In this document: in pieces, positions 3,127-56,046 of the stretch
Layout: every line of letters begins with the position of its first letter
Position numbering within the stretch: position 1 is the stretch's first letter
Source of the DNA: Diprion similis
Taxonomy: Eukaryota > Arthropoda > Insecta > Hymenoptera > Diprionidae
Assembly (NCBI RefSeq): GCF_021155765.1
Contig: NC_060105.1
Location: 16,339,001-16,403,000, forward strand
Reading direction: 5' to 3'
DNA: 64,000 nucleotides
Translations under genes and position numbers: made by a program
Notes under the pieces: generated by a model
Told to the model about the DNA's origin: nothing
Databases searched by the model: none
What the model saw: the letters and a program-made list of their open reading frames with translations, nothing else

Positions 3127-3316
3127 AACTAGGGTAAGTTCGGGGTAGATGGCCATAGTTTTTCCAAGGTTCAGTTAAAATAAAACTACATTTATATAGA
3201 CTGTAATTATTATTTGTATTTAAACTCTGAATATTATACTATAAATTGAATAACAAAAATCTAATAATTTCTAATAGGATCAACGTTAAAAACAATAAAA
3301 TTTGAAAATCACAACT

Positions 3317-3380
3317 GGCCATCTCTCCCGGCGCGTCCGGGAGAGATGGCCTTATTGTTAGTAGTACGGGAGAGTTGGCC
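3317..3380. promoter_or_regulatory. Left subterminal transposase-binding-like motifs
   Basis: Three copies of the terminal motif lie here: GGCCATCTCTCCCGG at 3317-3331, its inverse CCGGGAGAGATGGCC at 3337-3351 (together a near-perfect palindrome), and CGGGAGAGTTGGCC at 3367-3380. They repeat the inner part of the terminal inverted repeat and are likely binding sites for the transposase. Function is inferred. Confidence 0.6.
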
Positions 3381-3391
3381 AGTAAATACTT

Positions 3392-5434: not shown

Positions 5435-5520
5435 CTGAAATTAACGTAAACATGTTTTCTCAATTCAAAAATTATAAAAACATCGCTATTCATAGTAAGG
5501 CCATCACACCCTGACCGAAT

Positions 5521-19924: not shown

Positions 19925-22900
19925 TTAAAGAAATACATTTTCTTTACATATATAATAAATAAAAATAAAAAGAAGATAATTGCACTGACTCCACAAGCGT
20001 CTTCTCAAACAGCCAGCTAGCAACCAAGACAACGCACTCACTACTTCGGCACGCTCAATAGTCAGCAAATAATTGTAGCAACTCGTCTTGAACACTTCTG
20101 GAGATGAAGCGGTCGTGATAGCCGGCGGCAAAGAATTCCAGAAAAAAGTGTCCAAAACAAGAAAAGAGCGCTGGAAGGTGGATGTGCGCGGAACTGGTGC
20201 AATGAGCGTATCAGTACGATTATTGTCTCTATGCCTGGCTATGTTGTGGTTCATTCTTAGACGCTCACATAAGAGAGCATTCTTAGACGCTCACATAAGA
20301 GAGCATTCTTATTCATGGCCAGCATTCCGTAATAGATGCAGCCCAAAAGATACAGCCGACGATTGTGCGGCGCGAGCCAACCCAGGTCAAGCCTGGGCCC
20401 GCTGACGTGCACCCCAAGTGGCTTGCGCAGTATAAACCTCACACAGTTATTCAGTGCAACTGTCAGTTTCTTCTCAAGGTTTAAGTTTAGGTTAGTAAGG
20501 GCAGCTGCACAGTAGTCGAAGACAGGAAGAACTAAACTAGTAACAAGTTGCCGCTTCAGAGGGATATTTAAGTCATTGACGGAATGACGAAGGCGATACA
20601 ATATTCTCGACGCCGAGCTGCACGTCTTCGCAACCTGGCCTGTCCACGACAACCTTGGGTCAAGCATAACTCCGAGGTACTTGAAGCTGACCACGTACTC
20701 AATCACTTTACCGTCTAAAATAAGTCTTGGGATCTGATCAAGCCCAACTGAGTTCACATTGAATGCACTGTCCAAGATCATGGCCTTAGTCTTCCCAGCA
20801 TTAATCTTCAGCTTGTTACGCTGACACCACATAGTCACAGCCACAAGATCTTCATTCATCCTTTCGATACCGCTATTTAGCTCAGTGAGCTTACACGTAA
20901 GGTAAATAGCGCCATCATCAGCATAGAAAAGATGACTGCAATACCTTAAACACTTGGGGAGATCATTTATAAACAATGAGAAAAGCAACGGGCCAAGTAC
21001 ACTACCTTGGGGTACACCAGTGGAGCACTCACGCCATGTGGAAACATTATCACCATCTCTCACTGCATGCCTTCTTCCCGATAGATAAAGGTACATCCAA
21101 CTTCATACGCGAAACCAAATGCATGAAGCTTACGCAGCAAGAGCAGATGATCAACAGAATCAAACGCTTTCGTCAAGTCAATAAACACAGCCAACGTAAC
21201 TAACTGTTCATCTATGCCACACCGCACGTCATCAACAAACTTAATCACAGCAGTCTGCGTACCCATACCAGGCCGAAAGCCCGTTTGACACCGATCCAGC
21301 ACATCATGGTCATTAAGAAAACGAATAATCTGATCCAGCACAACGCGCTCACAGACCTTAGACATTGCACATAGTATCGATATCGGACGCATATCAGCTA
21401 CAGTCTGCGGGCTGCGAGCTTTGGGTATCGGCGTAATAAGCGACGATCGCCAAAGCGTCGGGTAGCACCCTCTGTGCAACGATGAATTAATTAGATCTGT
21501 GATCAGCGGCCCAAACAGAACCTTGAATGTCTTCAGCACATGAGCTGAGATGCCATCAACACCTTCAGCCCGCGAAGTCCCAAGTGAAATGCACTTCGCA
21601 ACCTCACGAGCGTCAACACGAGCAAATGAGAACAGAACACCGCCCCCTGGCCTCGCCAAGCCTGCTATCACTTCGTCTAGCGACGGAAGCTTACGGCCTC
21701 CAGTTATTGTAGCATAATAGTCATTTAAATCCTCAACACTAAAACGCAAGGCATCACGCAACTTAGCAGACGTTGCTGTCAACCCAAGCCTGTCCATTTC
21801 AACCCAAAACTGCTTCGTATGCCCAGCACGATTGAACATTGATTGAAGATAACTTGCTTGACACTTTTTCCAGAGCGACTGAGCCTGACGCCGCGATGTA
21901 ACATAGTCTTCCCAAGCCTGACGATGACGACTTCTCTTAAATCGCCGGTAGCACCTATCACGATCTCTGCGAATGTCTCTTAGCTCCTGCGTAATCCATG
22001 GAGCCGGGCTACGCTTAGCAACGAACTCACGCACAGGAACGCACTGATCAACAACATTTTTAAATAAATTATTCAGCTTAATGAGACGTGAGTCTAAAGA
22101 TCGCAGTGTACCACCAACATACTCGTCTAGCTCATGCAGTCTCGAGTTAACCATCTCCGCCGCGGCAGCAAAATCAGCTTCCTTCCACGATAAACACTTC
22201 ACAAGCCGTCTAACGGGCTTTGGATGTTTATACTTGAGACAGAAGTAAATCAGGTCATGCGAGGAAAGAAAGGGCTAACCTGACTGGCCCCACGATTCAA
22301 GAGCAGCAAGATGACTAACTGCGCAAACATCATTCCAGGTGTTTGCATCGACAGTGTGATTAGTTGGCTGCAAAGGCACAATACTCATACCAGTTCTCAC
22401 AAAAAAGTCTCGTAATCTAACTGCCTTATCGTTGTTGACTAAGAGATCAGCATTGAAGTCGCCAAGAACACAAGCAAACTTATAGTTGACCATCCTAGCT
22501 ATATAGTCATCCTCAAACGTACACATGTAGCCTGCTTTTGGCGGTCGATAAACAATAGCAATTAAGATCTTATGCTGAGATGGGCCCCAAACTTCTGCGA
22601 TGAGGTACTCTGGCAATATCGCATCTCCAGCTCCAATTGACGAACTAAGAAGACGAGCATTGAGCTCCTTTCGTACAAAGACTGCGACTCCGCCTCCACG
22701 CTTGCTATGCCGATCAACACGCAGCAGCACATATACTGGCAACACAACTTGGTGATCAGGGATCGCATCACAAAGCCAAGTCTCGACGACTCCAATTACG
22801 TGGTACGGGTTGACTCTAAAAAATTCTTTAAATTCGCAGAAATGCGCCATTAGAGACTGAGCATTAAGTGAGCAGACGTTGAGAACAGCAAATTCTGTAT

Positions 22901-22935
22901 TATTAACAGCAAGTAACGTTGTAGGAGACCCAAAT
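19925..22935 (-). pseudogene. CR1-like ORF2 (endonuclease-RT), damaged
   Basis: Reading leftward: an endonuclease from about 22935 (LNVCSLNAQSL, VIGVVETWL, RGGGVAVFV, GDFNADL); an in-frame TAG at about 22275; a linker and the first RT blocks (MRPISILCAMSKV, GFRPGMGTQTAV, FIDLTKAFDSVDHL) down to about 21090; a frameshift near 21090; GVPQGSVLGPLLFSLF and the catalytic FYADDGAIYL; then a 26-bp tandem duplication (20253-20304) that shifts the frame; and a C-terminal part ending with FWNSLPPAI, typical of CR1-group ORF2. At least three lesions make it inactive, though the sequence is otherwise well preserved. Confidence 0.9.
20253..20304. repeat. 26-bp perfect tandem duplication
   Basis: Unit starting ATTCTTAGACGC occurs twice head to tail (20253-20278, 20279-20304). 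As 26 is not a multiple of three it breaks the surrounding LINE ORF2 frame. Confidence 0.9.
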
Positions 22936-22937
22936 AG

Positions 22938-23663
22938 TTAAATGGCTAGTCGTTTCAGGTCCGTGGACGGCGAAATTCTAACCGGCCGATCAGCTTGCGA
23001 CTTCCTAAGGAAAACAGCACCATCGGATATCCAAATGTGCTTGCGGTCTACACGCGGAAATGCTTTTATGACACGATCCTTAAGCTGGTGAAGTTGGGCA
23101 GGTTGACGAAGGTTACCATATACCTTGACGTCAGGCAAAGATTGATCCACCTGCTTAGCATTAAAGTCGCGCTGTCCCTTCTTGGCATCAATAACCTTCC
23201 TGCAAGCATCCTTACTCTTCATAGCAACAACAATTGTGCGCGGCCCAGCTAGACCGCTACGACGAGATCCTGCAGCACGACGCCTCTTACCGATCCTGAG
23301 AGCATCAACAAGCTCATCCTCATCCAGCGTGACACCAAGCGCTCCGATGAGAGATCTAGAAAGCGATTTAATATCTTCTCCTTCAACTTCAGGCAAACCG
23401 CTGACGACCAGTTGATTGGACACTTGCTCGCAAGCTGCGCGTAATAGAACAGCTTCATCAGCCGCAGACAGCTTAGCTTCAGCTGGCTTTGACTCAACAG
23501 CAACAAGCCGATGTTGAAGATCATCTACCACCGCTTCAACAGCATCAACTTTAAGATTAGTTGCTTCCTGAGCAGTGTTGAGCGCCTCAAAATCTACACA
23601 AAGCGAAGCAACCTCAGCAGTAACCTTTTAAAGCTGCTCTCCAAATCCATCCAGCTTCGCGTT
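22938..23663 (-). pseudogene. CR1-like ORF1, 5'-truncated
   Basis: The intact downstream part (from about 23531) contains a coiled-coil end, an RRM-like segment (LVVSGLPEVEGED) and the closing motif HIWISDGAVFLRK found in LINE ORF1 proteins. Further upstream, toward 23663, the frame holds a stop at about 23625 and then runs into the gypsy LTR. It ends 3 bases before the ORF2 frame opens. Role before decay: LINE RNA-binding protein. Confidence 0.8.
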
Positions 23664-23667
23664 AATA

Positions 23668-23951
23668 GTGTTACACTTTTTAGCGTAACGAGTAAAACGA
23701 GGGTAAGAAGCTTAGTTAGGTGAGCAATTAAAAGGCGCTAAATGAGAAATATGCTTTGAGAAAAATGTATTTGGGGTAAAGAACGTGTTATCAGCTCAAA
23801 GTCTGAAACAGATCTGTTTTTACAATAATAGCGGTTGACGCAGCAACCTTATTCATTTGATGACATAAGAAGACTTAGTTTTCTTGCGTCACATGCCGAC
23901 TACTAGATCATTAGAAAAGGGGGTAAAGCGGGTGATTTTACCCTTTGTAAC
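23668..23951 (-). repeat. 3' LTR of gypsy copy 1
   Basis: 284 bp, in plus orientation GTGTTAC...GTAAC, with short terminal inverted repeats. It differs from the other LTR by one base in the word AATTAAAAGG (about 23730). Preceded by AATA. Confidence 0.95.
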
Positions 23952-23964
23952 ACTACTCCCCTCT
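23952..23964 (-). promoter_or_regulatory. Polypurine tract
   Basis: On the minus strand AGAGGGGAGTAGT directly precedes the 3' LTR. It is conserved at the same place in copy 2. Such a tract primes plus-strand DNA synthesis. Confidence 0.75.
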
Positions 23965-24818: not shown

Positions 24819-25289
24819 ATGTCGAGACATAATTTCATTAACGCCGCTATTTTAGTAAAAAAGTTTTTAATTTCCGATTTCAACGAAATTTCTGCTGAGA
24901 TTATAGAAACCAAATTCGCAGAAGAATGGGCTAAATTAAAATGTGGGCAACTAAATGCTTTTCATGTTCGGAGGGAATGCGGCATAAGGTGTCGACGCTG
25001 CTTATTAAGATTGTAAGTCTTGAAGACAAATTCTCGAAAGAATAAGGATTCTTCATCTTTCAATACTTCGAATTTTTTTTTTTATAGTTTCCATTTCGAA
25101 GTTCCAATAGAAGAAATTAAAGAACTATGTATTCATATCACTTTTGGAGGAGATGGACCAAAATGTATGGATTGTGATGAGGAACTAATCACCTTGGAAA
25201 GAAATACTAACATTTGTGAATCTTGTGAGGAGGTTAAAGATTCGATAAAAAAAATCATGGAATTATCCCATATTTTAAAAAATCTTTGA
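24819..25289 (+). CDS. Two-exon antisense gene for small Cys-rich protein
   Basis: Exon 1 (24819-25012, ATG at 24819) ends at GTAAGT; the 75-base intron (25013-25087) ends in a T-run and TATAG; exon 2 (25088-25289) continues in frame to a stop. The product would have 131 residues. Its middle has CGIRCRRC and its C-terminal half CMDC...CESC, a likely zinc ribbon-like pair. AATAAA overlaps the stop region (25286-25295), so start, intron, stop and poly(A) signal all fit a real transcript running against the retrotransposon. I do not recognise the family. It is convergent with the kinase gene, 44 bases apart. Copy 2 lacks this stretch through a deletion, so family-wide presence is untested. More upstream exons are possible. 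Confidence 0.6.
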
Positions 25290-25333: not shown

Positions 25334-26011
25334 TTAGTAGAGATTGGAGAGTAGTCTTTCTGTAAAATCTAAATAGATCTGTTCAGTCGTATTTTCTGCA
25401 TCGATAACTATCACGGGGGCAGGTAAGGAAGAAAAAATGCCTCTAATTAACCAATCTTCATGAACTTCTTGAATAGTTCTAAGCAATTGCAGAGGAATCT
25501 CTGTTTCTTCCTTGCGTGCACGAGAATTAATCCGAACAAAAGAGGTTTCTGAGGAAACTCGCAAATAAACTATTAAATCTACTCCGAGTTGGAACGCTTG
25601 AATGAGAAGAGCGGAATTTTTTCTGAGTAGATGAGCCTCGAAATCTCGAAGATTTCCTAACCTGCGATGAGTTTCGATAAAACAATCGCCGCTAAACATC
25701 GACCTTTTCATAATTTTGACAGGCCGAGAGGTTAAAAGAAGATGTCTATCGTACATAACTTGTTGAACGTAATGCTGGAACTGGTAGCAATATCTATTTG
25801 GGTCTTCATACATCAATTGTAATAAGTTGACTCCGGCAACATCACGGTACTGATCGAGGGGTTCTAATAGGGTGCAAACCTGAGGGTCCGACAAGAATCT
25901 TTTAGTAAAGGTTGTCTTCCCGCATCCGATATTCCCTTCGATGATAATAGAAAGTGACTTCTTCTTATGGAGTGAAATTCCGAAGGGAAGGTTATGTTCC
26001 CAATCAATCAA
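25334..26011 (-). CDS. Deoxynucleoside kinase carried by gypsy element
   Basis: A 225-residue frame that aligns by eye along its whole length with insect deoxynucleoside kinases (usual length ~250). Seen: P-loop EGNIGCGKTT (25-34); EPLDQYRDVAG with the catalytic Glu at 50; GVNLLQLMYEDP (60-71); the substrate-site motif KRS at 102-104, where the family has ERS; and the LID arginines in RARKEE (164-169); HEDWLI (184-189). The family phosphorylates deoxynucleosides, the first step of dNTP salvage. The frame has no ATG at its start: an in-frame TAG lies just upstream and the first codon is a TTG, but a good splice acceptor (CTTGTTTTCTAG) ends at 26015, so an upstream exon probably supplies the start. 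It lies where env sits in errantiviruses, 40 bases after the integrase stop, and is intronless. Confidence 0.93.
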   Translation of the reverse strand: MIDWEHNLPFGISLHKKKSLSIIIEGNIGCGKTTFTKRFLSDPQVCTLLEPLDQYRDVAGVNLLQLMYEDPNRYCYQFQHYVQQVMYDRHLLLTSRPVKIMKRSMFSGDCFIETHRRLGNLRDFEAHLLRKNSALLIQAFQLGVDLIVYLRVSSETSFVRINSRARKEETEIPLQLLRTIQEVHEDWLIRGIFSSLPAPVIVIDAENTTEQIYLDFTERLLSNLY

Positions 26012-26014
26012 AGA

Positions 26015-26029
26015 CTAGAAAACAAGAAG
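26015..26029 (-). promoter_or_regulatory. Putative splice acceptor for the kinase mRNA
   Basis: Minus-strand CTTCTTGTTTTCTAG directly before the kinase frame: a pyrimidine tract plus AG. The same sequence with one change (CTTCCTGTTTTCTAG) stands at the same place in copy 2 (51629-51643). It suggests a spliced subgenomic mRNA, as for env. No matching donor was proven; a GTGAGT lies in the leader near 30997-31002. Confidence 0.6.
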
Positions 26030-26051
26030 ACTCGAAGTTTCTTTACTTTTC

Positions 26052-29000
26052 TCAGGGTTGATTCAAAGGTGGTCTAACCTGGGAGGATGTTCCAGGTCCG
26101 GGTGATTCCGTTCGAGTGTGTTCCTCGAACGAAGCTAGACGGTCCAGGTGTACGACCTTTTCTTTAGAGTGAGGCGTTTTTCGGATCCTGTAAACGACAT
26201 CGTTGATCCGGTTAAATATTAAATATGGACCTTCCCAGTTTCGTTGGAGTTTTGGACATTTTCCTTTCTGTCTTCTAGGTTGGAAAAGCCAGACAGAATC
26301 TCCGGGATTAAATTTTAAATCTCTAGCTCGTATATCGTAGCGAGCTTTTAATTTATCTGAAGCCATAGAAATTCTTTCTCTTGCAAAATTATGAATTTCT
26401 TCTGGGCGTTGTTGTAAATCAGAGGCATAATCTGTCTGAGGTTGAGTTTGCACGGGAACAGGGCCTTTCTCTAAATCTGACGGGAGTCGAAGATTTCTCC
26501 CCGTAAGCATACAAGCGGGCGTCTGTTTTGTCGTCTCGTGAATCGCAGATCTATAAGACAGGAGGAAAAAAGGAATCCAGGTGTCCCAATCTCTCTGATT
26601 CTGCTCTACGAAGGACGACAAATATTGGAGTAAAGTTCTATTCAGACGTTCTATCATGCCGTCAGACTGAGGATGGAGGGGAGTAGTACGAGTTTTTCTA
26701 ACCCCTAAAATTTGAGTAACTTCTTTCATTAGGCTTGACTCAAAATTTCGGCCCTGATCGGTGTGTATTTCTAGAGGTACTCCGTGTCTACAGATAAATT
26801 CTTTTACGAACGCCTGAGCTACGGTAGAGGCTTCCTGACTGGCGAGTGGAATTACTTCGGGCCACTTGGTAAAATAATCAGCGATGACTAAGGCGTATTT
26901 ATTCCCACTGTAGGTTATAGGAAGAGGACCGAGGATATCCATTGCTACCCTCTCGAAAGGAGCTCCCACGTTGTAAACTTGAGGAGAGCTTTGTCCTTCA
27001 TCTCGAGGTCCTTTCTTCGACGTGCAGACTTGACATCTCCGACACCAGTCTTCTACTTCGGCACGACATCGTGGCCAAAAATAACGATCGCGTATCTTGC
27101 CTAAAGTTTTATTCGAGGCAAAGTGTCCACCTGCAGGAGAATCGTGGTAAAGAGCAAGAATCTCTGGAACTCGATTTCTGGGAACCAAAAATTGCCACTT
27201 GATCTCTTTCAAGTCCGCGGATTCCCATTTGCGGTATAATATTCCGTCTATTAAAAGAATGGAGTCCCATTGAGCCTAGTAAATTTTGACGTCAGACTCA
27301 GCTAAGGATATTTCTTGCCAGTCTGGGCGAGTTTCTGCTTCTTTCTAAGATTTAACCTGAGACAGAGTAGAATCTTCTTGTTGAGATCTTTTCCAATCTT
27401 CGAGGTTTTCTCTAAAAGAAATCTTCCGTATTGTAGGAGGAGGATCTCTGTATTTTTTAAGGCGAGTACATTGCCTACAATCTGTCGTTTTTTCGCAGGG
27501 TCTTCGAGAAAGAGCGTCAGCGTTTCCATGTTGTAAACCTGCTCGATGAAGAATTTCGAAATCGTACTGTCCGAGCCTCTCAATCCATCTAGCTACCTGA
27601 CCTTCGGGGGATTTAAACGAAAGTAACCACCTTAAAGAAGCATGGTCTGTTCTCATCAAGAATTTCCTCCCGTACAAATAATGATGAAAGTGGACTACGG
27701 TTTTAACAACAGCTAAGAGTTCTCTTCGAGTTACACAATAGTTCCTCTCGGTTTTACTAAGGACTCTGCTGTAATAGCTAATCGCTCTCTCCTGACCTTC
27801 CTGAATCTGTGACAAGGCTCCACCTATCCCTGACAAATAGGCGTCTGTATCTAAAATAAAAGGAAATTCGACCTCTGGATAGGCTAAAATCGGGGAAGAA
27901 GTAAGATTTTCTTTCAATTTCTTGAAGGCTTCTTCGCATTCCGGAGTCCAGTCGAATGGAATCTTGATTCCTGTGAGACAATGGAGGGGTTTGGCTATCG
28001 TGGCGAAACCTTTTACAAATCGTCTGTAGTAGGTACAGAGACCCAAAAAGCTCTGAACTTGCTCTTTGTTCGTCGGTGTCGGCCAAGCAGAGACCTTCTC
28101 GATCTTGGAGGGATCGGTCTTCACTCCTTCAGCGGAGACTATGTGACCGAGGAAGCTGACTTCTTTCTGGAACAGATGGCATTTCTTTGGACTCATCTTT
28201 AGCCCTGCTTGTTTTAACCTGGAGAAGACTTGTTTGAGGTGGTACACTTCTTCAAAGTCTTTCCCGAAAACGATTATGTCGTCCAAATAAACGAGGCAAA
28301 TTTTTCCTGTGAGTCCTTGGAGGACAGTCTCCATCATCCGTTCAAAGGTAGCCGGGGCGTTACTTAAGCCAAAAGGCATTACCTTAAATTGCCATAATCC
28401 TCCTAGTCCTGTGACGAAAGCTGTCTTTTCCTTGTCCAGGGGATCCATCTCAACCTGCCAATAGCCACTCTGAAGATCAATGGTACTGAACCAGGTCGCG
28501 CCAGCAATCAGATCGAGCGTTTCGTCGATTCTGGGGAGAGGATAGGAGTCCTTCTTGGTTATGTCGTTCAGCTTCCTGTAGTCTATGCAAAATCGCTTGG
28601 AGCCGTCCTTTTTGTTGACCAGGACGATCGGAGAAGCCCAGGGACTGGAAGAAGGCTCGATTACGTCGTTGGCCAGCATATCTTCAACGAGTTTCTTCAC
28701 CTCTTCTCTGCCGTTGAGAGCGAGTCTCCGGGGAGCTTGTTTAATTGGAGGATTGTTTCCGACGTCGATTTTGTGTTTTACCGACGTACATCTCCCCTTG
28801 TCTCCGCTGTTTACTGCAAAAGAATCTGCGTACTTAAATAAAACAGATTGAAAGGATTCCTTCTGTTGTAAATCCAGCGTGGTCGACGATTTTTCAAAAA
28901 GATTTTCTAGATGTGAAGGGAGCAGATTTTGATGATTGTCTTCGGAGAGTTCTACTTCTCGTATTCTTGGAGGAGTCCAGTACACTCTTCTTTTCTTCGA

Positions 29001-29440
29001 GCAGAGAGGGATTTCGCGGCTGTTAGACGTCAGAGAATTACTCTTGGTGGAAATCACGCAATCGTGAGCTGTGAGGAAATCTAAACCCAAAATACCTTCA
29101 TCCTCGATATCTGCGACAAAAACCTTGTGTGGAGAGTCGATACATCCGAAAAGGTTAATCTGCACGATAATCTCTCCCAAAACCGGGGTCGTCTCTCCAG
29201 TGGCTGTTCGCAAAGATAAAGAGGGAACAGTCTGGTCGTCAGATTTTAAAAGATCCGACCGAACAACGGTTACCTCTGCTCCGGTATCAATTATCCAGAG
29301 GCAGTCAACGCCATTGACAGTTCCGCGTGCGTAAAGACCAGACTGTCTTAAACTCCTTAGTAAAAACTGAGTCGCAAAAGGGCTTTCTACTCTAACAACC
29401 TGCGATGATTTTCGCCCTCCTAAATCATCTGAATCTAGTT
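26052..29440 (-). CDS. Gypsy pol: protease, RT, RNase H, integrase (two TAG stops)
   Basis: One reading frame of about 1,130 codons entered by -1 frameshift at 29438-29444. Protease: CLWIIDTGAEVTVV (about 29285-29245). Reverse transcriptase: FCIDYRKLNDITKKDSYPLP, FSTIDLQSGYWQVEM and the catalytic VYLDDIIVFG. RNase H: FILDTDAYLSGIGG and TDHASLRWLL. Integrase: an HHCC zinc module (RCRRCQVC end), then the DDE core with MDILGPLPI, HTDQGRNFES and PLHPQSDGMIERLN, and a C-terminal GDSVWLFQPRRQKGK. Two in-frame TAG codons lie between RNase H and integrase (27345-27347 and 27276-27278); copy 2 has TGG at both places. Without them the polyprotein would be complete. Order PR-RT-RH-IN is that of Ty3/gypsy. 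Confidence 0.95.
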
Positions 29441-30972
29441 TTTTGAGATAGCCATGGTCGAGGTGCCGGGATTAGAATTCTGATGACTATCTTCCCTGGC
29501 TACTTTACTATTTCGCCAATTATTAGCGTTTGAATTTGAGCTTTGCGTCTGAGACTCTGCTTTGCGTTTTAACGCGAAACAGTGATTGGCGTCATGGCCT
29601 TTTTGGTTGCAAAACAAGCAAGTGAGGGTAGTAAACCTATTGTCTACTCTCTCATTGACGTACTGAGGTCTTCTAATGTGGCTCTGAGAAGAACCGCGAC
29701 TATTCTTATCTTTAAAATTTCTATTATTATTGTAATTTTTATTATATTTCAGGTTATGAGACTTGGTCTCTTCCGAGCGACCACCCCCTTTTCTATAGAG
29801 GTGTTATCATCCACCTGTACTTGGCGGAGTTTGCCCGCTCCAAAATATTGTTTTCGCATGGCCTCCACCTCGAGAGCTTTGGCCATTGCCTCTCGTAAGG
29901 AAGTTAAACCCGACGTTCCAACGGCCATTTTAACTTCCGGGTCGTTAATAGCGTTTAAAAATGCTTGTGTCGCTAAAATATTACGTGACGGTTCGTGGTC
30001 TGGCAAAGCTATTCGCGACAGTCGCTCTATGTCTTGTCCGAGAGAGGCAAGGTCTTCGTCTCGTCCTTGTCTCCTAGTTTGTAATTGAGCAGTATATAAT
30101 TTTGTCAAATGATCATTACCGTATCTTAATTTTAACGCGGAGCTGAGCTTTTCGAAGTCAGAAATTTCTTCTTCTGACAAAGCTGTCAATACGTTCAAAG
30201 CTGGCGTTCTAAGACAAGAGGCAAGGCTATGAGCTTTCATGGCGGAGTCCCATTGATTATGTCTAGCAATTGTATTGAACTGTCTTTCATATTCAGCCCA
30301 CGGAATTTTTCCGTCAAAAATAGGCGGTTTTAACGCACAGATAGGTTTTTCACATGTTTGAGAGGGGACTCGGAATACTCTCTGATTATCTAATTGATTT
30401 GATTGTGGGAAATGAGGTTGAGCATTTGATGGTGGCTCGGGAAAGTAGGTCTCGGTTATTATTCTAGGTCTCGAAATCGGAGAACAGTCAAGTTCTCTAA
30501 TAAAAGGGACAGACCTTGAATCCTGGGGAGCCTGATCCGAAAAGACCTGGCGAGGAGAAGGATGAGGCGTGAGGACAGGAGAATTTTGAGGTGTGGCTGC
30601 AGACTGGTGTAACGACTGGAAGGTGGACATCGTCGTAGTAAATAGATCATGGAACCGTTCTTCCGAACGTGTCTGAGCCTCTTGTTGTCCCCGTAGAACA
30701 TCCATCAGATGCTGCTGATGACATTCAGCTGCTTCACGTTGTCGTTCAGCGGCTTCTCGTTGTCTCTCAGCTGCTTCCTGTTGAGCCTGAAGGACCTTCA
30801 GAAGGTCTAAAGCGGTGACGGTGGACGTCGAAGGTGTTGTAACAGGGGTCACCGTCGGTGCAGCTTCTGGAGCCGCAAAAGTTGGCTCGGGAACTTGTAG
30901 GTCTTCTCTCAGTGAGGGGCTATCTCCACAACTTTCCCGGCGGCGTGAGCGGGTCGAACGACTGACACTCAT
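29435..30972 (-). CDS. Gypsy gag (one frameshift)
   Basis: Starts at ATG 30972, about 60 bases below the LTR. The N-terminal part is Pro/Thr-rich, with a charged repeat EAAERQREAAERQREA (about 30760-30710). The capsid-like region follows (about 30330-29850, PPIFDGKIPWAEYERQF ... NAINDPEVKMAVGTSGL). A one-base shift in a G run (29784-29792) breaks the frame; in the next frame comes the nucleocapsid zinc knuckle CLFCNQKGHDANHC and the stop at 29435. The frame is short enough to be a simple capsid-nucleocapsid gag. Copy 2 has the same parts. Confidence 0.9.
29438..29444 (-). promoter_or_regulatory. -1 ribosomal frameshift heptamer A AAA AAC
   Basis: On the minus strand, the gag frame reads TCA AAA AAC TAG. 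Slipping back one base at A AAA AAC gives the pol frame, which then stays open. The heptamer followed by TAG is conserved in copy 2 (55005-55011). This is the canonical retroviral/gypsy slippery sequence. Confidence 0.9.
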
Positions 30973-31018
30973 CTTCAAATTCGCGCACTGAATTGACTCA
31001 CGAAAGAAAAGCTTTAAA

Positions 31019-31035
31019 TCCCGATTCTGACACCA
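31019..31035 (-). promoter_or_regulatory. Primer binding site, tRNA-Leu type
   Basis: Minus strand TGGTGTCAGAATCGGGA starts directly after the 5' LTR. It is complementary to a tRNA 3' end reading TCTGACACCA, which fits leucine tRNAs. Its immediate contact with the LTR supports the chosen LTR boundary. Confidence 0.75.
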
Positions 31036-31319
31036 GTGTTACACTTTTTAGCGTAACGAGTAAAACGAGGGTAAGAAGCTTAGTTAGGTGAGCAATTGAA
31101 AGGCGCTAAATGAGAAATATGCTTTGAGAAAAATGTATTTGGGGTAAAGAACGTGTTATCAGCTCAAAGTCTGAAACAGATCTGTTTTTACAATAATAGC
31201 GGTTGACGCAGCAACCTTATTCATTTGATGACATAAGAAGACTTAGTTTTCTTGCGTCACATGCCGACTACTAGATCATTAGAAAAGGGGGTAAAGCGGG
31301 TGATTTTACCCTTTGTAAC
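31036..31319 (-). repeat. 5' LTR of gypsy copy 1
   Basis: 284 bp, identical to the LTR at 23668-23951 except for one base (G in AATTGAAAGG). Followed by the second AATA. It should contain the element promoter and, in the other LTR, the poly(A) site. Confidence 0.95.
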
Positions 31320-31323
31320 AATA

Positions 31324-32074
31324 TGATATATAACTTCAAACTTTATCCTCGTTGTATAATATACGTTTTCGTCGAGGTTTTAGGTATTCTATTATAGAAA
31401 TATGAAAAATTGAAACGAAAATCTATCACAGTGCCTTAGAAAATGTGTTTGGAACATTGTATCGTGAATACGATCATGGAATCTGAATATTCTAAGTTGA
31501 GATTTTTGGCCGGCTCAAATCGATTTCGCAACACTGTGCGTCGTTAGCTACTTTTAAAAACAAGTAAAAATCAGTTTTTCCCTGTTATTCTTATGGAGAA
31601 TCGAACAGTGCGATGCGGAACCTCTTAATGTTAATATCAAGAGCTGAAATTATAACGGGAGTATTTGTATGCTTAAATTAAACTTTGGAAACTGTTTCGA
31701 AGAATTTGTTTTTTTCACGGATGGTCCTTATTTATGGTGTTTACGATTTTTTTCCTAATTTTTAAAGATTCTAAATCATTATTGTTAAAATGTAAAGGTT
31801 GCGGATATGGTGGAAGGTTTCTTTTCAACTACACCACACTGTATATTTTATATATATGATTATTATACTTTATTTATAATATTAGATTTAGTGACAACGT
31901 AATGGCTTTCCTGTTTGCCATGCGGTGCTTCGTACGAGAGTGACTCGATTTTGCAGTCACCTCTTCGTATCGCTGTATCGAACTATCGAACGCTGTACTA
32001 GAACATTGTCACACTTCTTTCTGTAACATATGCTGCAAGCTCTTATGGGTTAACCCCCAGAGCTAAATATACGA
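31324..32074. other. Non-coding AT-rich spacer
   Basis: No gene or clear repeat seen. Confidence 0.5.
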
Positions 32075-32278
32075 ATCTATCTATCCATCTATCCATCTAT
32101 CCATCTATCCATCTATCCATCTATCCATCTATCCATCTATCCATCTATCCATCTATCCATCTATCCATCTATCCATCTATCCATCTATCCATCTATCCAT
32201 CTATCCATCTATCCATCTATCCATCTATCCATCTATCCATCTATCCATCTATCCATCTATCCATCTATCCATCTATCC

Positions 32279-32317
<39 letters not shown>
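32075..32317. repeat. CTATCCAT octamer array grading into CTAT
   Basis: About 240 bases of CTATCCAT repeated some 25 times, very regular, ending in about nine CTAT units. The octamer is a derived form of the CTAT tetramer. Expected to vary in length between individuals. Confidence 0.98.
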
Positions 32318-33535
32318 GCTCATAAAAACATGGTAATATGTAAACATAACAGTACTCATAGATAATCCGACAGGTACGGATCTAGACTTATTTCAACAAT
32401 TATCATCATTGCTATCATAAATCACTATAATAATCATAATCATGATTATAATAATTCGTGGTTTTAGTTACATGTACAATGATAATTCCGAAGATAATTC
32501 GAAATGAAAAATTGAATTGAAATTGTACTTAAAGGAACTGTGTTATATGAACATAGCATAAGAAAATGTTATCAATAATGATTGTATTATTATGTTATAC
32601 AATTTTTTGCACTTGACTGCGTAAAATTGAGATGAAAATGAATTAACTATTGAAAAAATCCAATGATAATAGATTTCATTGAATTTTTGATGATGATTGT
32701 TTGAAAATTTACGCGGCAAAAAAATTAGAAAAAAAAAATGCGTCATAATTGGGTAAATGATTGATTTGCGATTTCAATTCGCGTAACGCACAGTCGGAAA
32801 TTGGTGGTAACTTTACGAAATTTAGAATTGTCAATTAGAAAAAAAATAATTACATACGGTTGATTCATTAGTAGAAAAAATGGTTTGAATGGAAATTAGT
32901 GTTATGATGGCATAATTGGCAAAAATGACCAACGAAAAAGTTGAAACATGTGAGATGGCGATAAACGCCTATTTAAGAGGTAGGTAAATTTATTAATCTC
33001 GCAGTAAGTAGTCTCGTTAATAATGACAATACCATTTAACGCTGTCCTACCGCTGACATTACGTGCTTAGGGTATTTTCGTCTGCTAAGCATGCCTGTAC
33101 TTCGTTCGGGTTGAAGTTTCCGCTAGTTGGCGCGTCGGAATGAGCATGGAATGAGCATAGATTCGCAATTTTTCACCACACATTGGTACTAGCTGTGGTG
33201 CGCGGGTGTTTACGGGGCTAAGCATTGGCGTAGCAAAAGCGTGAAATGCTAACGCTAGCGCTACTTGCGTTAACCAGTTACAGAATCGCTCTGTTTTGGT
33301 GCCAACGACGAAAGGACGAACATCATGCAACATCTAGCGGTGATCGTCGAAAACGTACGACCACGTCATAGCCGATGTTCGCGACAGAGGGATGACCTAA
33401 TTGTGGTGGGGAACAAACGACCAATCACAGGGAAGAAGAATCACATGACGACAACGGCGAGGTGTGTCATCCGGACTCAGCCCATTCTACGCTCAACTCG
33501 CCAAAAGACAGCTTTGCTAACACCTCCATCGCTTG
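32318..33535. other. Non-coding spacer
   Basis: AT-rich to about 33000. From 33070 to 33500 the composition becomes GC-richer (GCTAGTTGGCGCG, CATCTAGCGGTGATCG), but no frame or motif is convincing. Confidence 0.45.
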
Positions 33536-50039: not shown

Positions 50040-50316
50040 TGAAACGGACTCGCGTTTCAAATAAAATGTAGGTACGTGAGCTTAGTTAACGGAATCAATA
50101 AAAGGCGTGATGTGAAATATTTGGAGGAAAAATGCTTTAATGGCAATATGTGTTTCTCGTTTTAAGTCTAAAACAGGACTGTTTTTACAATAATAGCGGT
50201 TGACGCAGCAACCCTATTCATTTTATAACATGAGAACGTTTATACTTCTTGCGTCACAAGCCGACTACTAGATCGTTTGAATGGGGAGTAAAACGGGTGA
50301 TTTTACCCTTTGTAAC
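50040..50316 (-). repeat. 3' LTR of gypsy copy 2
   Basis: Its right part (from about 50180, CAATAATAGCGGTTGACGCA onward to GTAAC at 50312-50316) matches the copy 1 LTR closely; the left part is strongly diverged, so the outer boundary is approximate. The polypurine tract follows. Confidence 0.75.
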
Positions 50317-51211
50317 ACTACTCCCCCCTGAGGAAAAGAGTCGTCCCGACTCGTACAAATTGAAGCAATAGTGATCCTGATCTAGCAGACGGTGCTCGAA
50401 GGTGAGTCAGAGCTGTGGCTCTAAAAATTCAAAGACTCCTTTTCTCCTATCTGGCATTTGCCCACAGTCTCAAGGTAAACCACAAAAAACCTTGAGCAGA
50501 TAGTTGAGCATTGGACTGAATTTCAAAAATTTAATGTCCGTGTTTTCACAAAGGTCAGTGTAAAAGTGTGTAGTGTACAACTTCGTGTAAAATCCGAAGG
50601 AGCGGCCAGTTCCCAAATTCCGGAAATCTGGAAAATCCAAATTGGGTCAAGATGATCCGGGAAAAGGACCACGGGGACAGGAGAGGTTCCAATAGAAGTC
50701 CAAAATCGATGGTGTCCTTAGGAAGCTTTTGGGGTCTCTTCTCAACTTTCGGGAACGAGGGAGGGGAAAAGAGGCGAGCCAGTCCCGAATTCTTTCGGAA
50801 ACTGCACACCCTAGATTGGGAGGACAAACGTGAGTGAAGGCAGACAAATCCGGATTCGCTAAGCGAATTTGGGAAAAGCACAGATCGTATAGATTTTTTT
50901 TTTGTTTTTCATTTGAAGGAGAGAAAATAAACGATCTTATCTGGATTAATGTTGAGTGCTTCTTTAAAATCAGGTCCTTCAGTCATCCTCAGGTTCCAGG
51001 AGAAGGTAAAGGAAAATCGGGTTGTGCCATAAAGCAACCTGAAAAAGTGCTGACAAAACTGACACATGGGTTCGAAAAATGTGAAAATCAAATAATCGCT
51101 TATCGACCATGAAAAATAACAATCGCGGCTCTGTTCAGACCATAAAGAAATCAGAGCCAATTCGACACAAAACTCGATTTATGAGAAGAATCTTCTAGAA
51201 GAAACGAACGC

Positions 51212-51628
51212 TTGAACGAGAAGAGCAGAATTTTTTCTGAGTAAATGAGCCTCGAAATGTCGAAAATTTCCTAACCTGTGATGAGTCTCGATAAAACAAT
51301 AACCGCTAAACATCGACCTCTCCATAATTTTGACAGGCCGAGAGGTTAAAAGAAGATGCCTATCGTACATAACCTGTTGAACGTGATGCTGGAACTGGTA
51401 GCAGTATCTATCCGGGTCTTCATACATCAATTGTAGTAAGTTGACTCCGGCAACATCAGGGTACTGATCGAGGGGTTCTAACAGGGTGCAAACCCGGTGG
51501 TCCGACAAAAATCTCTTAGTAAAGGTTGTCTTCCCGCATCCGATGTTTCCTTCGACGATAATAGAAAGTGGCTTCTTCTTACGAAGTGAAATTCCGAAGG
51601 GGAGCTTATGCTCCCAATTAATTAAAGG
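51212..51628 (-). pseudogene. Truncated deoxynucleoside kinase of gypsy copy 2
   Basis: Matches about the first 140 residues of the copy 1 kinase: EGNIGCGKTTFTKRFLSD, LEPLDQYPDVAGVNLLQLMY, and the intact ERS motif in KIMERSMFSG. It breaks off where copy 1 reads LLIQAF, joining directly to sequence that in copy 1 lies some 840 bases further on. The lost piece covers the kinase C-terminus and the antisense gene. The same splice acceptor stands just upstream (51629-51643). Confidence 0.9.
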
Positions 51629-51644
51629 CTAGAAAACAGGAAGA

Positions 51645-52870
51645 CTTGAAGTTCATGTTACTTTTCTCAGGGCTGGTTCGAAGGTGATCTAACCTGGGAG
51701 GATGTTCCAGGTCCGGGTGATTCCGTTCGAGTTCGTTCTTCGAATGGAGCAAGACGGTCCAGGTGCACGACCTTTTCTCTGGAGTGAGGCGTTTTTCGGA
51801 TCCTGTAAACGACATTGTTGATCCGGTTAACCACCATATATGGCCCTCCCAGTTACTTTGAAATTTTGGACATCGTCCTCTCTGTCGTCGTGGTTGAAAG
51901 AGCCAGACAGAGTCTCCAGGGTTAAATGTAATATGTCTAGCTCGCAAATCATATCGCGCTTTCAGTTTATCTGAAGCTATAGAAATTCTTTCTCTCGCGA
52001 AATCGTGAATTTCTCCCAAGCGTTGTTGGAGGTTAAATGCGAAATCTGTTTGAGGCTGAGTTTGAGCAGGAACAGACAGGGCCTCTTTCTAAATCTGACG
52101 AGAGGCGAAGATTTCTTCCCGTAAGCATCATGGCTGGCATCTGTGTCGTCGTCTCGTGAATCGCAGACCTATACGTCCGGAGGAAAAAGGGGATCCAAGA
52201 GTCCTAGTCTCTGTGATTGCGGTCTACGAAGGACGAAAAATATTGTAACAATGTTCTGTTCAAACGTTTTACCATGCCATCAGATTGAGGATGCAAAGGA
52301 GTCGTACGAGTCTTTCTGATCCCTAATAACTGGGTAACCTCTTTCATTAGACTCGACTCAAAATTTCGGCCTTGATCTGTGTGAAGTTCTAGGGGAACTC
52401 CGTGCTTACAAACGAATTCTTTGACAAACGCTTGAGCTACAGTAAGAGCTTCTTGATTAGCGAGCGGGACCACTTCTGGCCACTTTATGAAATAATCAGC
52501 CATGACTAAAGTGTATCTATTTCCTGACTGAGTTACAGGGAGAGGGCCAAGGATGTCCATTGCCACTCTCTCGAACGGTGCTCCTACGTTGTAAATCTGA
52601 AGAGAACTCCGGCCTTTGTTTCTCGGACCTTTCTTTGCTGCGCAGACTTGACATCTTCGACACCGGTCTTCCACGTCAGCTCGACATCGTGGCCAAAAAT
52701 AATGCTCAAGAATTCTTCCGAGGGTTTTGTTTGAGGCGAAGTGACCTCCAGCAGGGGAATCGTAATGGAGAGCAAGAATTTCAGTAACTCGAGTTCTGGG
52801 GACCAGGAGTTGCCATCTAATCTCCCGTCAATCTGTAGATTCCCATTTCCGGTATAAAATTTCATCTGAT
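51645..52870 (-). pseudogene. Integrase of gypsy copy 2, broken
   Basis: HHCC zinc region end (CRRCQVC), DDE core (MDILGPLPV, HTDQGRNFES, PLHPQSDGM) and the C-terminal GDSVWLFQPRRQRG are recognisable, but a stop at about 52204, frameshifts near 52080 and 51840, and stops near 52860 and 52820 break it. Confidence 0.88.
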
Positions 52871-55007
52871 CAATGGATGGATTCCCATTGAGCCCAATAA
52901 ATCTTCAAAGTTGGTTCTGCTGGGGATACGTCTTGCCAGTCTGGGTGAGTTCCTGCGTTTTTCCACGTCTTGAGCAAGGCTAAGGCATCATCCTCTTGCA
53001 GAGACATCTTCCATTCCCCTAGGTTTTCTCCAAGAGAAATCTTCCGTATTGTAGGAGGAGGATCTCTGTATTTTTCAAGACGAGTACATTACCTACAATC
53101 TGTTGTTTCTTCGCAGGGTCTTCGAGAGAGAGCGTCAGCGTTTCTATGTTGTAAGCCTGCTTGATGACGAATTTCGAAATCGTACTGTCCGAGCCTCTCA
53201 ATCCACCTAGCTACCTGACTTTCGTGGGATTTAAACAAAAGTAACCACCTTAAAGAAGCATGGTCTGTTCTCATCAAAAATTTCCTCCCGTACAAGTTAT
53301 GATGAAAGTGGACTACGGTTTTAACAACAGCTAAGAGTTCTCTACGAGTAACACAATAGTTTCTCTCGGTTTTACTAAGGACTCTGCTGTAATAGCTAAT
53401 CACTCTCTCTTGACCTTCCTGTATCTATGACAAGACTCCACCTATCCCTGACAAAGAGGCGTCTGTATCTAAAATAAAAGGAAGTTCGACCTCTGGATAG
53501 GCTAAAATCGGGGAAGAAGTAAGATTTTCTTCCAATTTCTTAAAGGCTTCTTCGCATTCCGGAGTCCAGTCGAATGGAATCTTGATTCCTGTGAGACGAT
53601 GCAGGGGCTTGGCAATCGTGGCGAAACCTTTTACGAATCTTCTGTAATAGATGCAGAGACCCAAAAAGCTCTGAACCTGCACCTTGTTCGTCGGTGTCGG
53701 CCAAGCAGAGACCTTCTCGATCTTGAAGGGATCGGTCTTCACTCCTTCAGCGGAGACTATGTGGCCGAGGAAGCTGACTTCTTTCTGGAACAGATGGCAT
53801 TTCTTTGGACTCATCTTCAGGCCTGCCCGTTTTAACCTGGAGAAGACTTGTTCGAGGTGGTCCACTCCTTCTTCAAAGTCCTTCCCAGAGACGATTATGT
53901 CGTTCAAATAAATGAGGCAAATTTTCCCTGTGAGTCCTTGGAAAACAGTCTCCATCATCTGTTCAAAGGTAGCCGGGGCGTTACTTACGCCAAAAGGCAT
54001 TACCTTAAATTGCCATAATCCTCCTAGTCCCGTGACGAAGGCTGTCTTTTCCTTGTCCAGGGGACCCATCTCGACCTGCCAGTAACCGCTCTGAAGATGA
54101 ATGGTACTGAACCAGGTTGCGCCAGCAATCAGATCAAGCGCTTTGTCGATTCTGGGGAGAGGATAGGAGTCTTTCTTGGTTATGTCGTTCAGCTTTCTGT
54201 AATCAATGCAAAAACGCTTGGAGCCGTCCTTTTTGTTGACCAGGACGATCGGAGAAGCCCAGGGGCTGGAAGAAGGCTCGATTACGTCGTTGGTCAGCAT
54301 ATCTTCAACGAGTTTCTTCACATCCTTCCTGCCGTTGAGGGCGAGCCTCCGGGGAGTTTGTCTCCCCTTGTCTCTGCTGTTGACTGCAAAAGAATCTGCG
54401 TACTGAAATAATACAGATTTAACGGATTCCTTCTGTTGCAAATCCAGCGTGGCCGACGATCTATTAAAAAGATTTTCTGGATGCGAAGGGAGCAGATCTT
54501 GATGATTGTCTTCGGAGAGCTCCACTCCTCGTAATCTTGGAGGAGTCCAGTACACTCTTCTTCTCTTCGAGCAGAGAGGGATTTCGCAGCTGTTAGACGC
54601 CAGAGAATTCCTCTTGGTGGAAATCACGCAATCGTGAGCTGTGAGGAAATCTAAACCCAAAATACCTTCATCCTCGATATCCGCGACAAAAACCTTGTGT
54701 GGAGAGTCGATACATCCGAAGAGGTTAATCTGCACGATAACCTCTCCCAAAATTCGGGTCGTCTCTCCAGTGGCTGTTCGCAAAGACAAAGAGGGAACAG
54801 TCTGGTCATCGGATTTTAAGAGATCCGATCGAACAACAGTTACCTTCGCTCCGGTATCAATTACCCAGAGGCAGTCAATGCCATTGACAGTTCCACATGC
54901 GTAAAGACCAGACTGTCTTAAACTCCTTAATAAAAAGTGTGTTGCGAAACGGCTTTCTACTGTAACCTGCGATGATTTTCGCCCTCCCAAATCATCTGCA
55001 TCTAGTT
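52871..55007 (-). pseudogene. Protease, RT and RNase H of gypsy copy 2
   Basis: Protease (CLWVIDTGAKVTVV), RT (FCIDYRKLNDITKKDSYPLP; catalytic motif reads IYLNDIIVSG, with Asn in place of the first catalytic Asp), and RNase H (DTDASLSGIGG, TDHASLRWLL). An in-frame TAG at about 53433 replaces a glutamine codon of copy 1. The Asp-to-Asn change in the catalytic pair means the RT is dead even apart from the stop. Confidence 0.9.
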
Positions 55008-56046
55008 TTTTGTGGTATTTGACGAGGTACTTGCCTGAGGATTATTTTCCCTGGCTATCCTTTTATTTCACTAATTCTGAGTATCTGAATCCGAATTTTT
55101 CGGCGTATTTTCTGCTTTGCGTTTTAACGCGAAACAATGATTGGAATCGTGGCCTTTTCGTTTACAAAATAAGCAAGTGAGAGCGGACCTATTATCTACA
55201 CTTTCTCTGGCGTATTCCGATTTTCCGCCTTGTTGCTGAGAAGAGCCACGACTATTTTCATTATAATTTCTAAAATTTTGACTAACTTTTTGACTACCTT
55301 GTCTAGTCTTTCCTGAGATTTTTTGTGTCCGTTCGGTCAAGGTGTTTTCGATGACTTCACCTTGTCTGACTTTGGCTACACCTAGGTATTGTTTTCTTAA
55401 AGCTTCTATTTCAAGAGCTTTAATTATAGTTTCTCTAAGAGTAGAAACGCCTGAAGTACTGACGGCTAATTTGACTTCAGGGTTATTCATGGCTTTAACA
55501 AATGCTTCGACTGCTATGAAATCTCTTAAGGTTTCTCCATCTGGGATAGCCGTTCGTGCTAAACTTTCGATATCTTGGCCAAGTGTAGCCAAGTCTTCGT
55601 CTCGTATTTGTCGTCTGTTTTGTAGTTGGGTTAAATAGAGCTTCTTCAAATGCTAACAACCAAATCTAACCTGAGAGCTGAGCTCAATTTGTCATAGTTT
55701 AATCTCGCAGAAGGAGAAAGAGTTGACAAGACCGAAACTGCGGGACCTCGTGAACTGACAGCTAAATTATTTGCTGTTGCAGTAGAGTCCCAAAGATTAT
55801 GATTTGCCGCTGCTCAAAATTGGTTATCAAAATCGGTCCAAGACATTTGACCGTAAAAGGTGGGTGGTTTAATTGGAGCAGAAGGCCTAGAAGTAGAGAA
55901 ATGTGACATTTCTCTAACAGGGTTTGGAATAGCCTCGTAATGATGTCCAAGACCGCTCATAAAAGAGTCGTCAAAGTTAATTTGTGGGGCTACAGGACGA
56001 GGGGGAGGCACAGGAAAAGTGACTTTCTCTCGAATTCTTGGTCTAC
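55008..56046 (-). pseudogene. Gag of gypsy copy 2, truncated
   Basis: Nucleocapsid knuckle (CLFCKRKGHDSNHC), capsid part (NNPEVKLAVSTSGVSTLRE) and the PPTFYGQMSWTDFDNQF region align with copy 1. A stop at about 55650 breaks the frame. The frame runs into the hAT terminus at 56047 in the SCRPRI region, equal to ISRPRI of copy 1. The slippery heptamer is at 55005-55011. Confidence 0.85.

What the first reader, a model, noticed from the sequence alone, without database searches (positions are those of the whole stretch)
25334..26011. Deoxynucleoside kinase gene carried inside a Ty3/gypsy retrotransposon
Seen: a near-full-length kinase frame with P-loop, EP, substrate-site and LID motifs lies between integrase and the 3' LTR, in the sense of the element. 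A truncated but clear version lies in the same position in a second, diverged copy with different flanks (51212-51628). So the gene is part of the family. Known: this enzyme family makes dNMPs from deoxynucleosides, the limiting salvage step in non-dividing cells. Inference: the element carries its own dNTP supply for reverse transcription. I know of no described gypsy lineage with this cargo, but I cannot search.
Basis: partly seen in the sequence, partly recalled or inferred. Interest (0 to 1): 0.93.

Follow-up and report, generated by a model that had tools for sequence, protein, structure and literature searches.

The report
Retrotransposon that carries a nucleoside kinase
A family of jumping genes in what is probably an insect genome has captured a cell enzyme that makes DNA building blocks, appears to splice it onto the end of its own copying machinery, and has kept its sequence under selection, perhaps to supply its own raw material when it copies itself.

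Summary
Minus-strand frame 25334-26014 is a deoxynucleoside kinase (Pfam dNK, E 5.8e-40) between integrase (IN) and 3' LTR of a Ty3/gypsy-type element (LTRs 99.3% alike). It belongs to the family: of 88 kinase places in the genome (lower bound, fragments counted apart), 48 lie behind this family's IN, 31 behind its gag (deletion derivatives), 3 are exons of the host's dNK gene, 6 are unassigned. Fifteen element kinases form one clade; between-subfamily dN/dS is 0.10-0.23.

New here: the kinase is not a separate ORF. A 56-65-nt GT..AG intron ends the IN frame; its removal joins IN in frame to the kinase (20 of 22 kinase starts, many of them near-identical copies). Two copies of different subfamilies lack exactly this intron. 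So spliced full-length RNA probably makes a Pol-kinase fusion. dNTP supply for reverse transcription is the likely, untested, function. An antisense two-exon cysteine-rich gene lies downstream.

Not everything fits: about a dozen copies keep only a decayed kinase remnant, some kinases have damaged motifs, and the window copy is damaged. Ten open-access paper searches showed me no such element.

The parts
31035..31323 (-). 5' LTR (TG...CA ends at about 31320 and 31037)
   Evidence: 99.3% identical to 23667-23955 over 289 bp
31025..31035 (-). primer binding site TGGTGTCAGAA, tRNA-Leu-like (tRNA identity recalled, not tested)
   Evidence: sequence next to the 5' LTR
29435..31038 (-). gag with a CCHC knuckle; in this copy split into two overlapping frames (29749-31038, 29435-29803)
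   Evidence: one frame of 506-555 aa in 5 of the 20 fetched copies and in further places
27345..29471 (-). pol: protease, reverse transcriptase, RNase H, 708 codons
   Evidence: Pfam; one 1140-aa frame together with IN in 5 of the 20 fetched copies
26079..27275 (-). integrase (H2C2, rve, p58_C), coding part up to the splice donor; the unspliced frame ends in the intron at 26052
26015..26078 (-). 64-nt intron CAG^GTTAGA...TTTTCTAG^, phase 0 on both sides; holds the stop of the unspliced IN frame
   Evidence: precise absence in two copies; no RNA evidence
25334..26014 (-). deoxynucleoside kinase exon, 226 codons + stop
24819..25012 (+). antisense gene, exon 1 (ATG; donor GTAAGT at 25013)
25088..25289 (+). 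antisense gene, exon 2, cysteine-rich; stop 25287-25289, convergent with the kinase
23667..23955 (-). 3' LTR
51179..51628 (-). second copy: truncated kinase exon directly behind the same kind of acceptor; intron before it is 65 nt
50079..55652 (-). second, diverged and degraded copy of the element (one LTR found; no 5' LTR found)

Best explanation
This is a lineage of Ty3/gypsy-type LTR retrotransposons that once captured a processed animal dNK mRNA and placed it at the 3' end of pol. SHOWN by sequence: order LTR-gag-PR-RT-RH-IN-kinase-(antisense gene)-LTR; one clade of element kinases; purifying selection; a GT..AG intron between IN and kinase whose removal gives one frame; two copies that lack exactly that intron. 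INFERRED: unspliced genomic RNA makes Gag and Gag-Pol ending in IN; a spliced share of full-length RNA makes Gag-Pol-dNK, so kinase is carried with RT into the particle (free or as a fusion). LIKELY but untested: it phosphorylates deoxynucleosides (pyrimidines at least, as insect dNK does), raising dNTPs for reverse transcription in cells whose own synthesis is low.
For: Position: 46 of the 48 IN places at 62% identity or more (fragments counted apart; 54 of the 105 rows were used) have kinase sequence within 1.5 kb downstream; the 6 rows at 46-48% have none. Selection: NG86 dN/dS of the kinase 0.10-0.23 in 17 between-subfamily pairs that I chose (25 pairs run of 210 possible), IN 0.12-0.22 and RT 0.05-0.20 with two exceptions named in the report; a close pair of decayed copies gives about 1. 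Catalytic residues (Dm-dNK numbering) K33, E52, Y70, F114, R169, E172 in 15 of 15 element kinases aligned, R105 in 14, E104 in 13 (15 of 21 copies were put in). Intron: donor AG^GTTnGA and acceptor AG at 20 of 22 kinase starts, 56-65 nt, length modulo 3 = 0, 1 or 2, read-through stops in all 20. Intronless: a spliced-junction pattern finds 2 places in the genome against 0 for the reversed-pattern control; one keeps IN fused in frame to the kinase with RNase H sequence upstream. Element clade 15 of 15, support 100/99. Host dNK gene is split into exons; element kinases are not.
Against: No RNA, protein or enzyme data. About a dozen IN places are followed only by a kinase remnant (about aa 98-220 at most, 40-60% identity, with stops); one of these has an open 1137-aa pol frame, so the kinase is not needed in every copy, or is given in trans. 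Gag-only derivatives spread without it. In one search, 4 of 15 kinases have a changed P-loop Gly (L022, L023, L025, L028), 2 lack the ERS Glu (window, L021), 1 lacks the ERS Arg; several have stops. IN, RT and kinase distances disagree in some pairs, so modules have been exchanged. The 20 introns are not 20 independent cases: about half come from near-identical copies.
Confidence: 0.68

Rival explanations
1. The kinase is made as a separate protein from a short subgenomic mRNA, as errantiviral env is, by splicing an upstream donor to the acceptor before the kinase.
For: The acceptor is conserved and the kinase frame opens exactly behind it with no Met before the P-loop; env in insect Metaviridae comes from such RNAs (PMC12992720, passages read).
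Against: A matching donor lies 56-65 nt upstream in the same frame and phase at 20 of 22 starts, and the two intronless copies show that this donor was used; one of them keeps IN and RNase H sequence upstream. An extra upstream donor was not searched for and could coexist.
Confidence: 0.15
2. The kinase domain is kept for a non-catalytic role, for example as a C-terminal domain of integrase that binds nucleic acid or a host factor.
For: It is joined to IN, and all 15 element kinases aligned carry Tyr where the four dNK-family enzymes compared have Trp57; 4 of 15 have a changed P-loop Gly.
Against: Most P-loop, EP, ERS and LID residues are conserved across subfamilies as in active enzymes; a scaffold would not need them.
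Confidence: 0.1
3. The kinase is passenger DNA: a captured gene that spreads with the element and has no use.
For: Half-kinases in many gag-only derivatives; about a dozen copies with a decayed kinase, one of them with open pol; the window copy itself is damaged.
Against: Between-subfamily dN/dS 0.10-0.23, about as low as IN; intron boundaries and frame kept at kinase dS around 1.
Confidence: 0.05
4. Host gene segment or segmental duplication next to an ordinary gypsy element.
For: None found.
Against: Dozens of places on many contigs, ATAT on both sides of 5 of 11 copies printed, host dNK gene elsewhere without element DNA.
Confidence: 0.01

Closest known systems
dUTPase-bearing fungal Ty3/gypsy elements (PosPlaTy3-3, -4, -5; Phanerochaete; Tuber) (PMC2864245, passages read)
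   Same: A nucleotide-metabolism enzyme added to Pol, in PosPlaTy3-4 at the Pol C-terminus; the paper recalls the view that dUTPase lets viruses replicate in non-dividing cells
   Different: dUTPase, not a deoxynucleoside kinase; the passages mention no intron between Pol and the enzyme
Retroviral dUTPases (betaretroviruses; PMC2774666 passages; lentiviruses recalled)
   Same: Accessory enzyme acting on the dNTP pool
   Different: Other enzyme and other family; no kinase
Insect errantiviruses / iERVs (ZAM, gypsy) (PMC12992720, passages read)
   Same: Third gene between pol and 3' LTR, reached by splicing
   Different: That gene is env-F on a subgenomic RNA; here a kinase, joined to Pol by a 56-65-nt intron; I saw no env-sized extra frame in the window copy
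Insect multisubstrate dNK (Dm-dNK, PDB 1j90/1ot3; 6ybh)
   Same: Family and motifs; 37-41% identity in the 6 of 15 element kinases compared
   Different: Cellular enzyme; the host's own gene is split into exons; element kinases have Tyr at Trp57 and Gly, Ser or Asn at Ala110
Plant LTR elements with antisense ORFs (Grande, RIRE2, Retand) (PMC7264820 abstract and passages; PMC11963269 passages)
   Same: Antisense gene between pol and 3' LTR
   Different: Homology not tested; here cysteine-rich, with two exons, in a probable animal genome, next to a kinase

Membership tests
Ty3/gypsy (Metaviridae) LTR retrotransposons | LTRs, PBS, and pol order PR-RT-RH-IN | tested here: met
Ty3/gypsy (Metaviridae) LTR retrotransposons | RT phylogeny inside Metaviridae | not tested
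   no reference RT set was on hand; Pfam content only
Ty3/gypsy (Metaviridae) LTR retrotransposons | short target-site duplication (4 bp) | tested here: inconclusive
   ATAT on both sides in 5 of 11 copies whose ends were printed (L009, L012, L013, L014, L030), some inside AT runs; not exact in the window copy, L017 and L020; the end was not located in L010, L021 and L023
Deoxynucleoside kinase family (PF01712) | profile match above the gathering score | tested here: met
   137.7 bits against a cut-off of 27
Deoxynucleoside kinase family (PF01712) | P-loop, EP, ERS and LID residues | tested here: met
   met by the family as a whole (15 of 21 copies aligned); the ERS Glu is Lys in the window copy and L021, and 4 of 15 have a changed P-loop Gly
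Deoxynucleoside kinase family (PF01712) | phosphorylates deoxynucleosides | not testable with these tools
   needs an enzyme assay
Errantivirus / iERV | env-F gene between pol and 3' LTR | tested here: not met
   in the window copy that interval holds the kinase and an antisense gene and no other frame of 100 aa or more on the element strand; no env profile was run
dUTPase-bearing gypsy elements | dUTPase domain | tested here: not met
   no dUTPase among Pfam hits of the window element's frames

The most novel reading that the evidence does not exclude
A self-provisioning retrotransposon: the first retroelement known to encode a deoxynucleoside kinase, delivered into its particles as an optional C-terminal domain of Pol by a small intron, in a lineage that also encodes an antisense zinc-binding-like protein. 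Kinase-less and gag-only relatives live as parasites on it, so the kinase could be a shared good among elements.
Probability: 0.45. Interest if true: 0.9.

Novelty: new variant of a known kind. Interest (0 to 1): 0.82.

Why it matters
dNTP supply limits reverse transcription in resting cells; hosts exploit this and retroviruses answer in several ways (established knowledge, recalled). The retroelement-encoded enzyme of this sort that I met in the literature is dUTPase. A kinase, kept under selection and joined to Pol by an intron, would be a direct metabolic answer, can be tested with one enzyme assay and RNA data, and has a natural control in the same genome: relatives that lost it.

Tried and rejected
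Chance or a host segment: rejected. An own short kinase ORF with its own start: no Met before the P-loop in the copies printed. A second intron between RNase H and IN: rejected; in the window that gap is two in-frame stops, and in 5 of the 9 other copies printed the frame is open there. Editing-like G-to-A hypermutation of the window copy: no excess (7 G>A among 41 private changes). Structure of P0001 alone: mean pLDDT 35.8, discarded. Viral contigs: 4 pattern matches for the kinase, none a relative; none for IN. Pfam for the antisense exons: nothing above a cut-off. In one search the IN and RT values of L011 took in a neighbouring element; redid four L011 pairs on the right element and then stopped with an error, so L016 was not redone (no L016 pair is among the 17). 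Literature: ten searches in PMC open-access text; those pairing a kinase term with retrotransposon terms listed no paper whose title or shown abstract describes a dNK-bearing LTR element; one search matched 3,957 papers and showed 20, so it is weak. Subscription papers and Repbase were not searched. Other species could not be searched.

Full report
WHAT IS IN THE WINDOW. The frame 25334-26014 on the minus strand encodes 226 residues that match Pfam dNK at 137.7 bits (cut-off 27) and insect dNK structures at E about 1e-43. It lies in an element on the minus strand bounded by LTRs 23667-23955 and 31035-31323 (289 bp, 2 mismatches), with gag, protease-RT-RNase H and integrase (IN) in that order. 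A second copy at about 50079-55652 is 85% identical over 4.1 kb and carries a truncated kinase at 51179-51628. The window copy is damaged: two stops close the pol frame between RNase H and IN, gag is split over two frames, and a Lys stands at the ERS Glu of the kinase.

IT IS A FAMILY. The window's own assembly (269 Mb, 60 contigs) has 62 places for PF01712 and 88 for the protein itself; these are lower bounds, and pieces of one kinase count apart. Of the 88, 48 lie within 700 nt behind an IN place of this family, 31 lie within 1.5 kb behind a gag place (using 41 of the 100 gag rows), 3 are exons of one host gene, and 6 are not assigned by these rules. For the IN comparison I used 54 of the 105 rows (46% identity or more) and dropped the 51 rows at 33-38%. 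Of the 48 rows at 62% or more, 46 have kinase sequence downstream within 1.5 kb; the two without are truncated INs. The 6 rows at 46-48% have none. I fetched 20 of the 62 places with 9.8 kb each; IN aligns directly upstream of the kinase in 18 of 20 (L026 and L028 are the exceptions). Ten of the 20 have two LTR matches that are 95% or more alike (in L010, L019 and L022 only 149-157 nt could be compared), so the family was active in the recent past.

ONE CLADE, KEPT BY SELECTION. In a tree of 15 element kinases (of 21 available; near-identical and frame-shifted ones left out), two insect dNKs, the host dNK and human dCK, the elements form one clade (100/99). The tool warns of long branches, and no other donor candidates were at hand, so the donor is open. 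Six element kinases compared are 37-44% identical to insect or host dNK and 30-32% to human dCK. The host gene (L029) is split into three exon matches and has no LTR, gag, IN or 3'-region match; the element kinases are unbroken, so a processed mRNA was probably captured. That the host is an arthropod, probably an insect, is my inference from the host dNK (54% to Dm-dNK, 34% to human dCK). NG86 dN/dS in the 17 between-subfamily pairs I chose was 0.10-0.23 for the kinase. The locus L011 holds a second element that had entered its IN and RT values; four L011 pairs were redone on the right element, with kinase 0.12-0.23. With these, IN gives 0.12-0.22, apart from one 45-codon comparison at 0.35, and RT 0.05-0.20, apart from L021-L011 at 0.54 with dS only 0.05. 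The close decayed pair L023-L024 gave 0.97 (kinase) and 1.17 (IN), as dead copies should; the window copy against L012 gave 0.85 at dS 0.02. The pairs share sequences and are not independent. In L021-L011 the kinase dS is 1.2, IN 0.23 and RT 0.05, and L012-L022 also disagrees: modules have been exchanged between subfamilies.

THE INTRON. In the copies printed, the kinase frame begins directly behind a pyrimidine-rich stretch ending in AG, without a Met before the P-loop. Looking for an AGGTT-like donor 45-100 nt upstream, I found AG^GTTnGA at the end of IN at 20 of the 22 kinase starts (two in the window, 20 in L009-L028). The intron is 56-65 nt long, its length modulo 3 is 0, 1 or 2, both sides are phase 0, and reading through always meets a stop. 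So only splicing keeps IN and kinase in one frame in all subfamilies. About half of these copies are near-identical, so the independent cases are fewer. The two exceptions are L026, which lacks the IN region, and L028, in which the intron is exactly missing. A pattern for the joined exons finds two places in the genome, L028 and C8:9885364 (L039), against none for the reversed pattern. In L039 the IN frame runs straight into the kinase, with RNase H sequence upstream (that copy has stops elsewhere), so an RNA that kept pol but had lost just this intron was probably reverse transcribed. That is strong, though indirect, evidence that the splice occurs in the germ line.

HOW IT PROBABLY WORKS. 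Unspliced RNA gives Gag and, by a frame change (gag and pol are in different frames), Gag-Pol ending in IN; spliced full-length RNA gives Gag-Pol-kinase. Kinase would thus travel with RT. All 15 kinases aligned keep K33, E52, Y70, F114, R169 and E172 (Dm-dNK numbering), 14 keep R105 and 13 keep E104. Supply of dNMP for reverse transcription is the simplest use; it is inferred from the known role of the enzyme family. An open pol frame and a kinase frame open over the whole domain occur together in 4 of the 20 fetched copies.

AGAINST IT. About a dozen IN places are followed only by a decayed kinase remnant with stops; one of them has an open 1137-aa pol frame and an LTR 97.6% like the window's. 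A uniform group of gag-only derivatives (18 places with the remnant 391-395 nt behind gag) keeps the C-terminal half without a P-loop. Both could be served in trans. Four of 15 kinases have a changed P-loop Gly, and several have stops. There is no expression or enzyme evidence.

AN ANTISENSE GENE. Between kinase and 3' LTR, on the other strand, lies a two-exon gene (window 24819-25012 and 25088-25289) that converges on the kinase stop, with GTAAGT and a T-rich AG acceptor; joined exons stay in frame (read by eye). Similar exon pairs lie in the same place in other subfamilies at 27-46% identity; 8 of the 17 loci with a match show a stop in it. NG86 dN/dS is 0.07-0.21 in the 12 of 17 pairs run where dS could be estimated. 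It has several CxxC pairs and no Pfam match above cut-off. Exon-1-like places at 25-36% occur away from this family; the one I fetched (L037) lies beside a double-jelly-roll capsid gene. In L011, L021, L023 and L024 I saw no such gene by eye.

LITERATURE. Fungal gypsy elements with dUTPase in Pol are the nearest precedent (PMC2864245, passages); spliced env in insect Metaviridae is the nearest for expression (PMC12992720, passages); plant antisense ORFs for the third gene (PMC7264820, abstract and passages; PMC11963269, passages). PMC11952523 (a preprint, passages) describes sORF2 in Drosophila elements and has no mention of kinase in its main text. I found no dNK-bearing LTR element in my ten searches (listed with their limits under Tried and rejected).

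VERDICT. Real, and part of an element family under selection; expression as a Pol fusion by splicing is well supported by sequence; function is a good inference. New variant of a known kind. The mended counts changed none of the odds.

Noticed in passing
window 24819-25289 (+): Antisense two-exon cysteine-rich gene convergent with the kinase, low dN/dS between copies, no Pfam match above cut-off; stops in 8 of 17 loci matched.
   Followed up: partly
L037 (G000:C5:5721400-5728400), about 3227-3929 (-): A relative of the antisense gene's exons lies beside a double-jelly-roll capsid gene (PF21738), as in Polinton-like elements (recalled); a gene shared by retro- and DNA elements?
   Followed up: partly
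L030-L032 and further places: Non-autonomous derivatives, about 3.5 kb in L030: LTR, open gag, deletion of pol and the kinase N-half, LTR; LTRs of L030 99.65% alike.
   Followed up: yes
G000:C14:782160 and relatives (L034, L035): Copies with only a decayed kinase remnant behind IN; one has an open 1137-aa pol frame.
   Followed up: partly
L028: Besides lacking the intron, this copy has Ala, Arg and Asn at the sites of Val84, Met88 and Ala110 of Dm-dNK; from recall, changes at these sites shift dNK towards purines. The copy is degraded (ERS Arg and a P-loop Gly changed).
   Followed up: no
window 20257-23627 (-), 11664-14768 (-), 3392-5440 (-), 56458-58388 (-): Other mobile elements in the window: non-LTR RT frames and a DDE_1/psq transposase; a hAT-like frame at 56458-58388 by eye only, with no Pfam match for the part tested.
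   Followed up: no
window 32011-32370: An array of an 8-bp tandem unit just upstream of the element.
   Followed up: no
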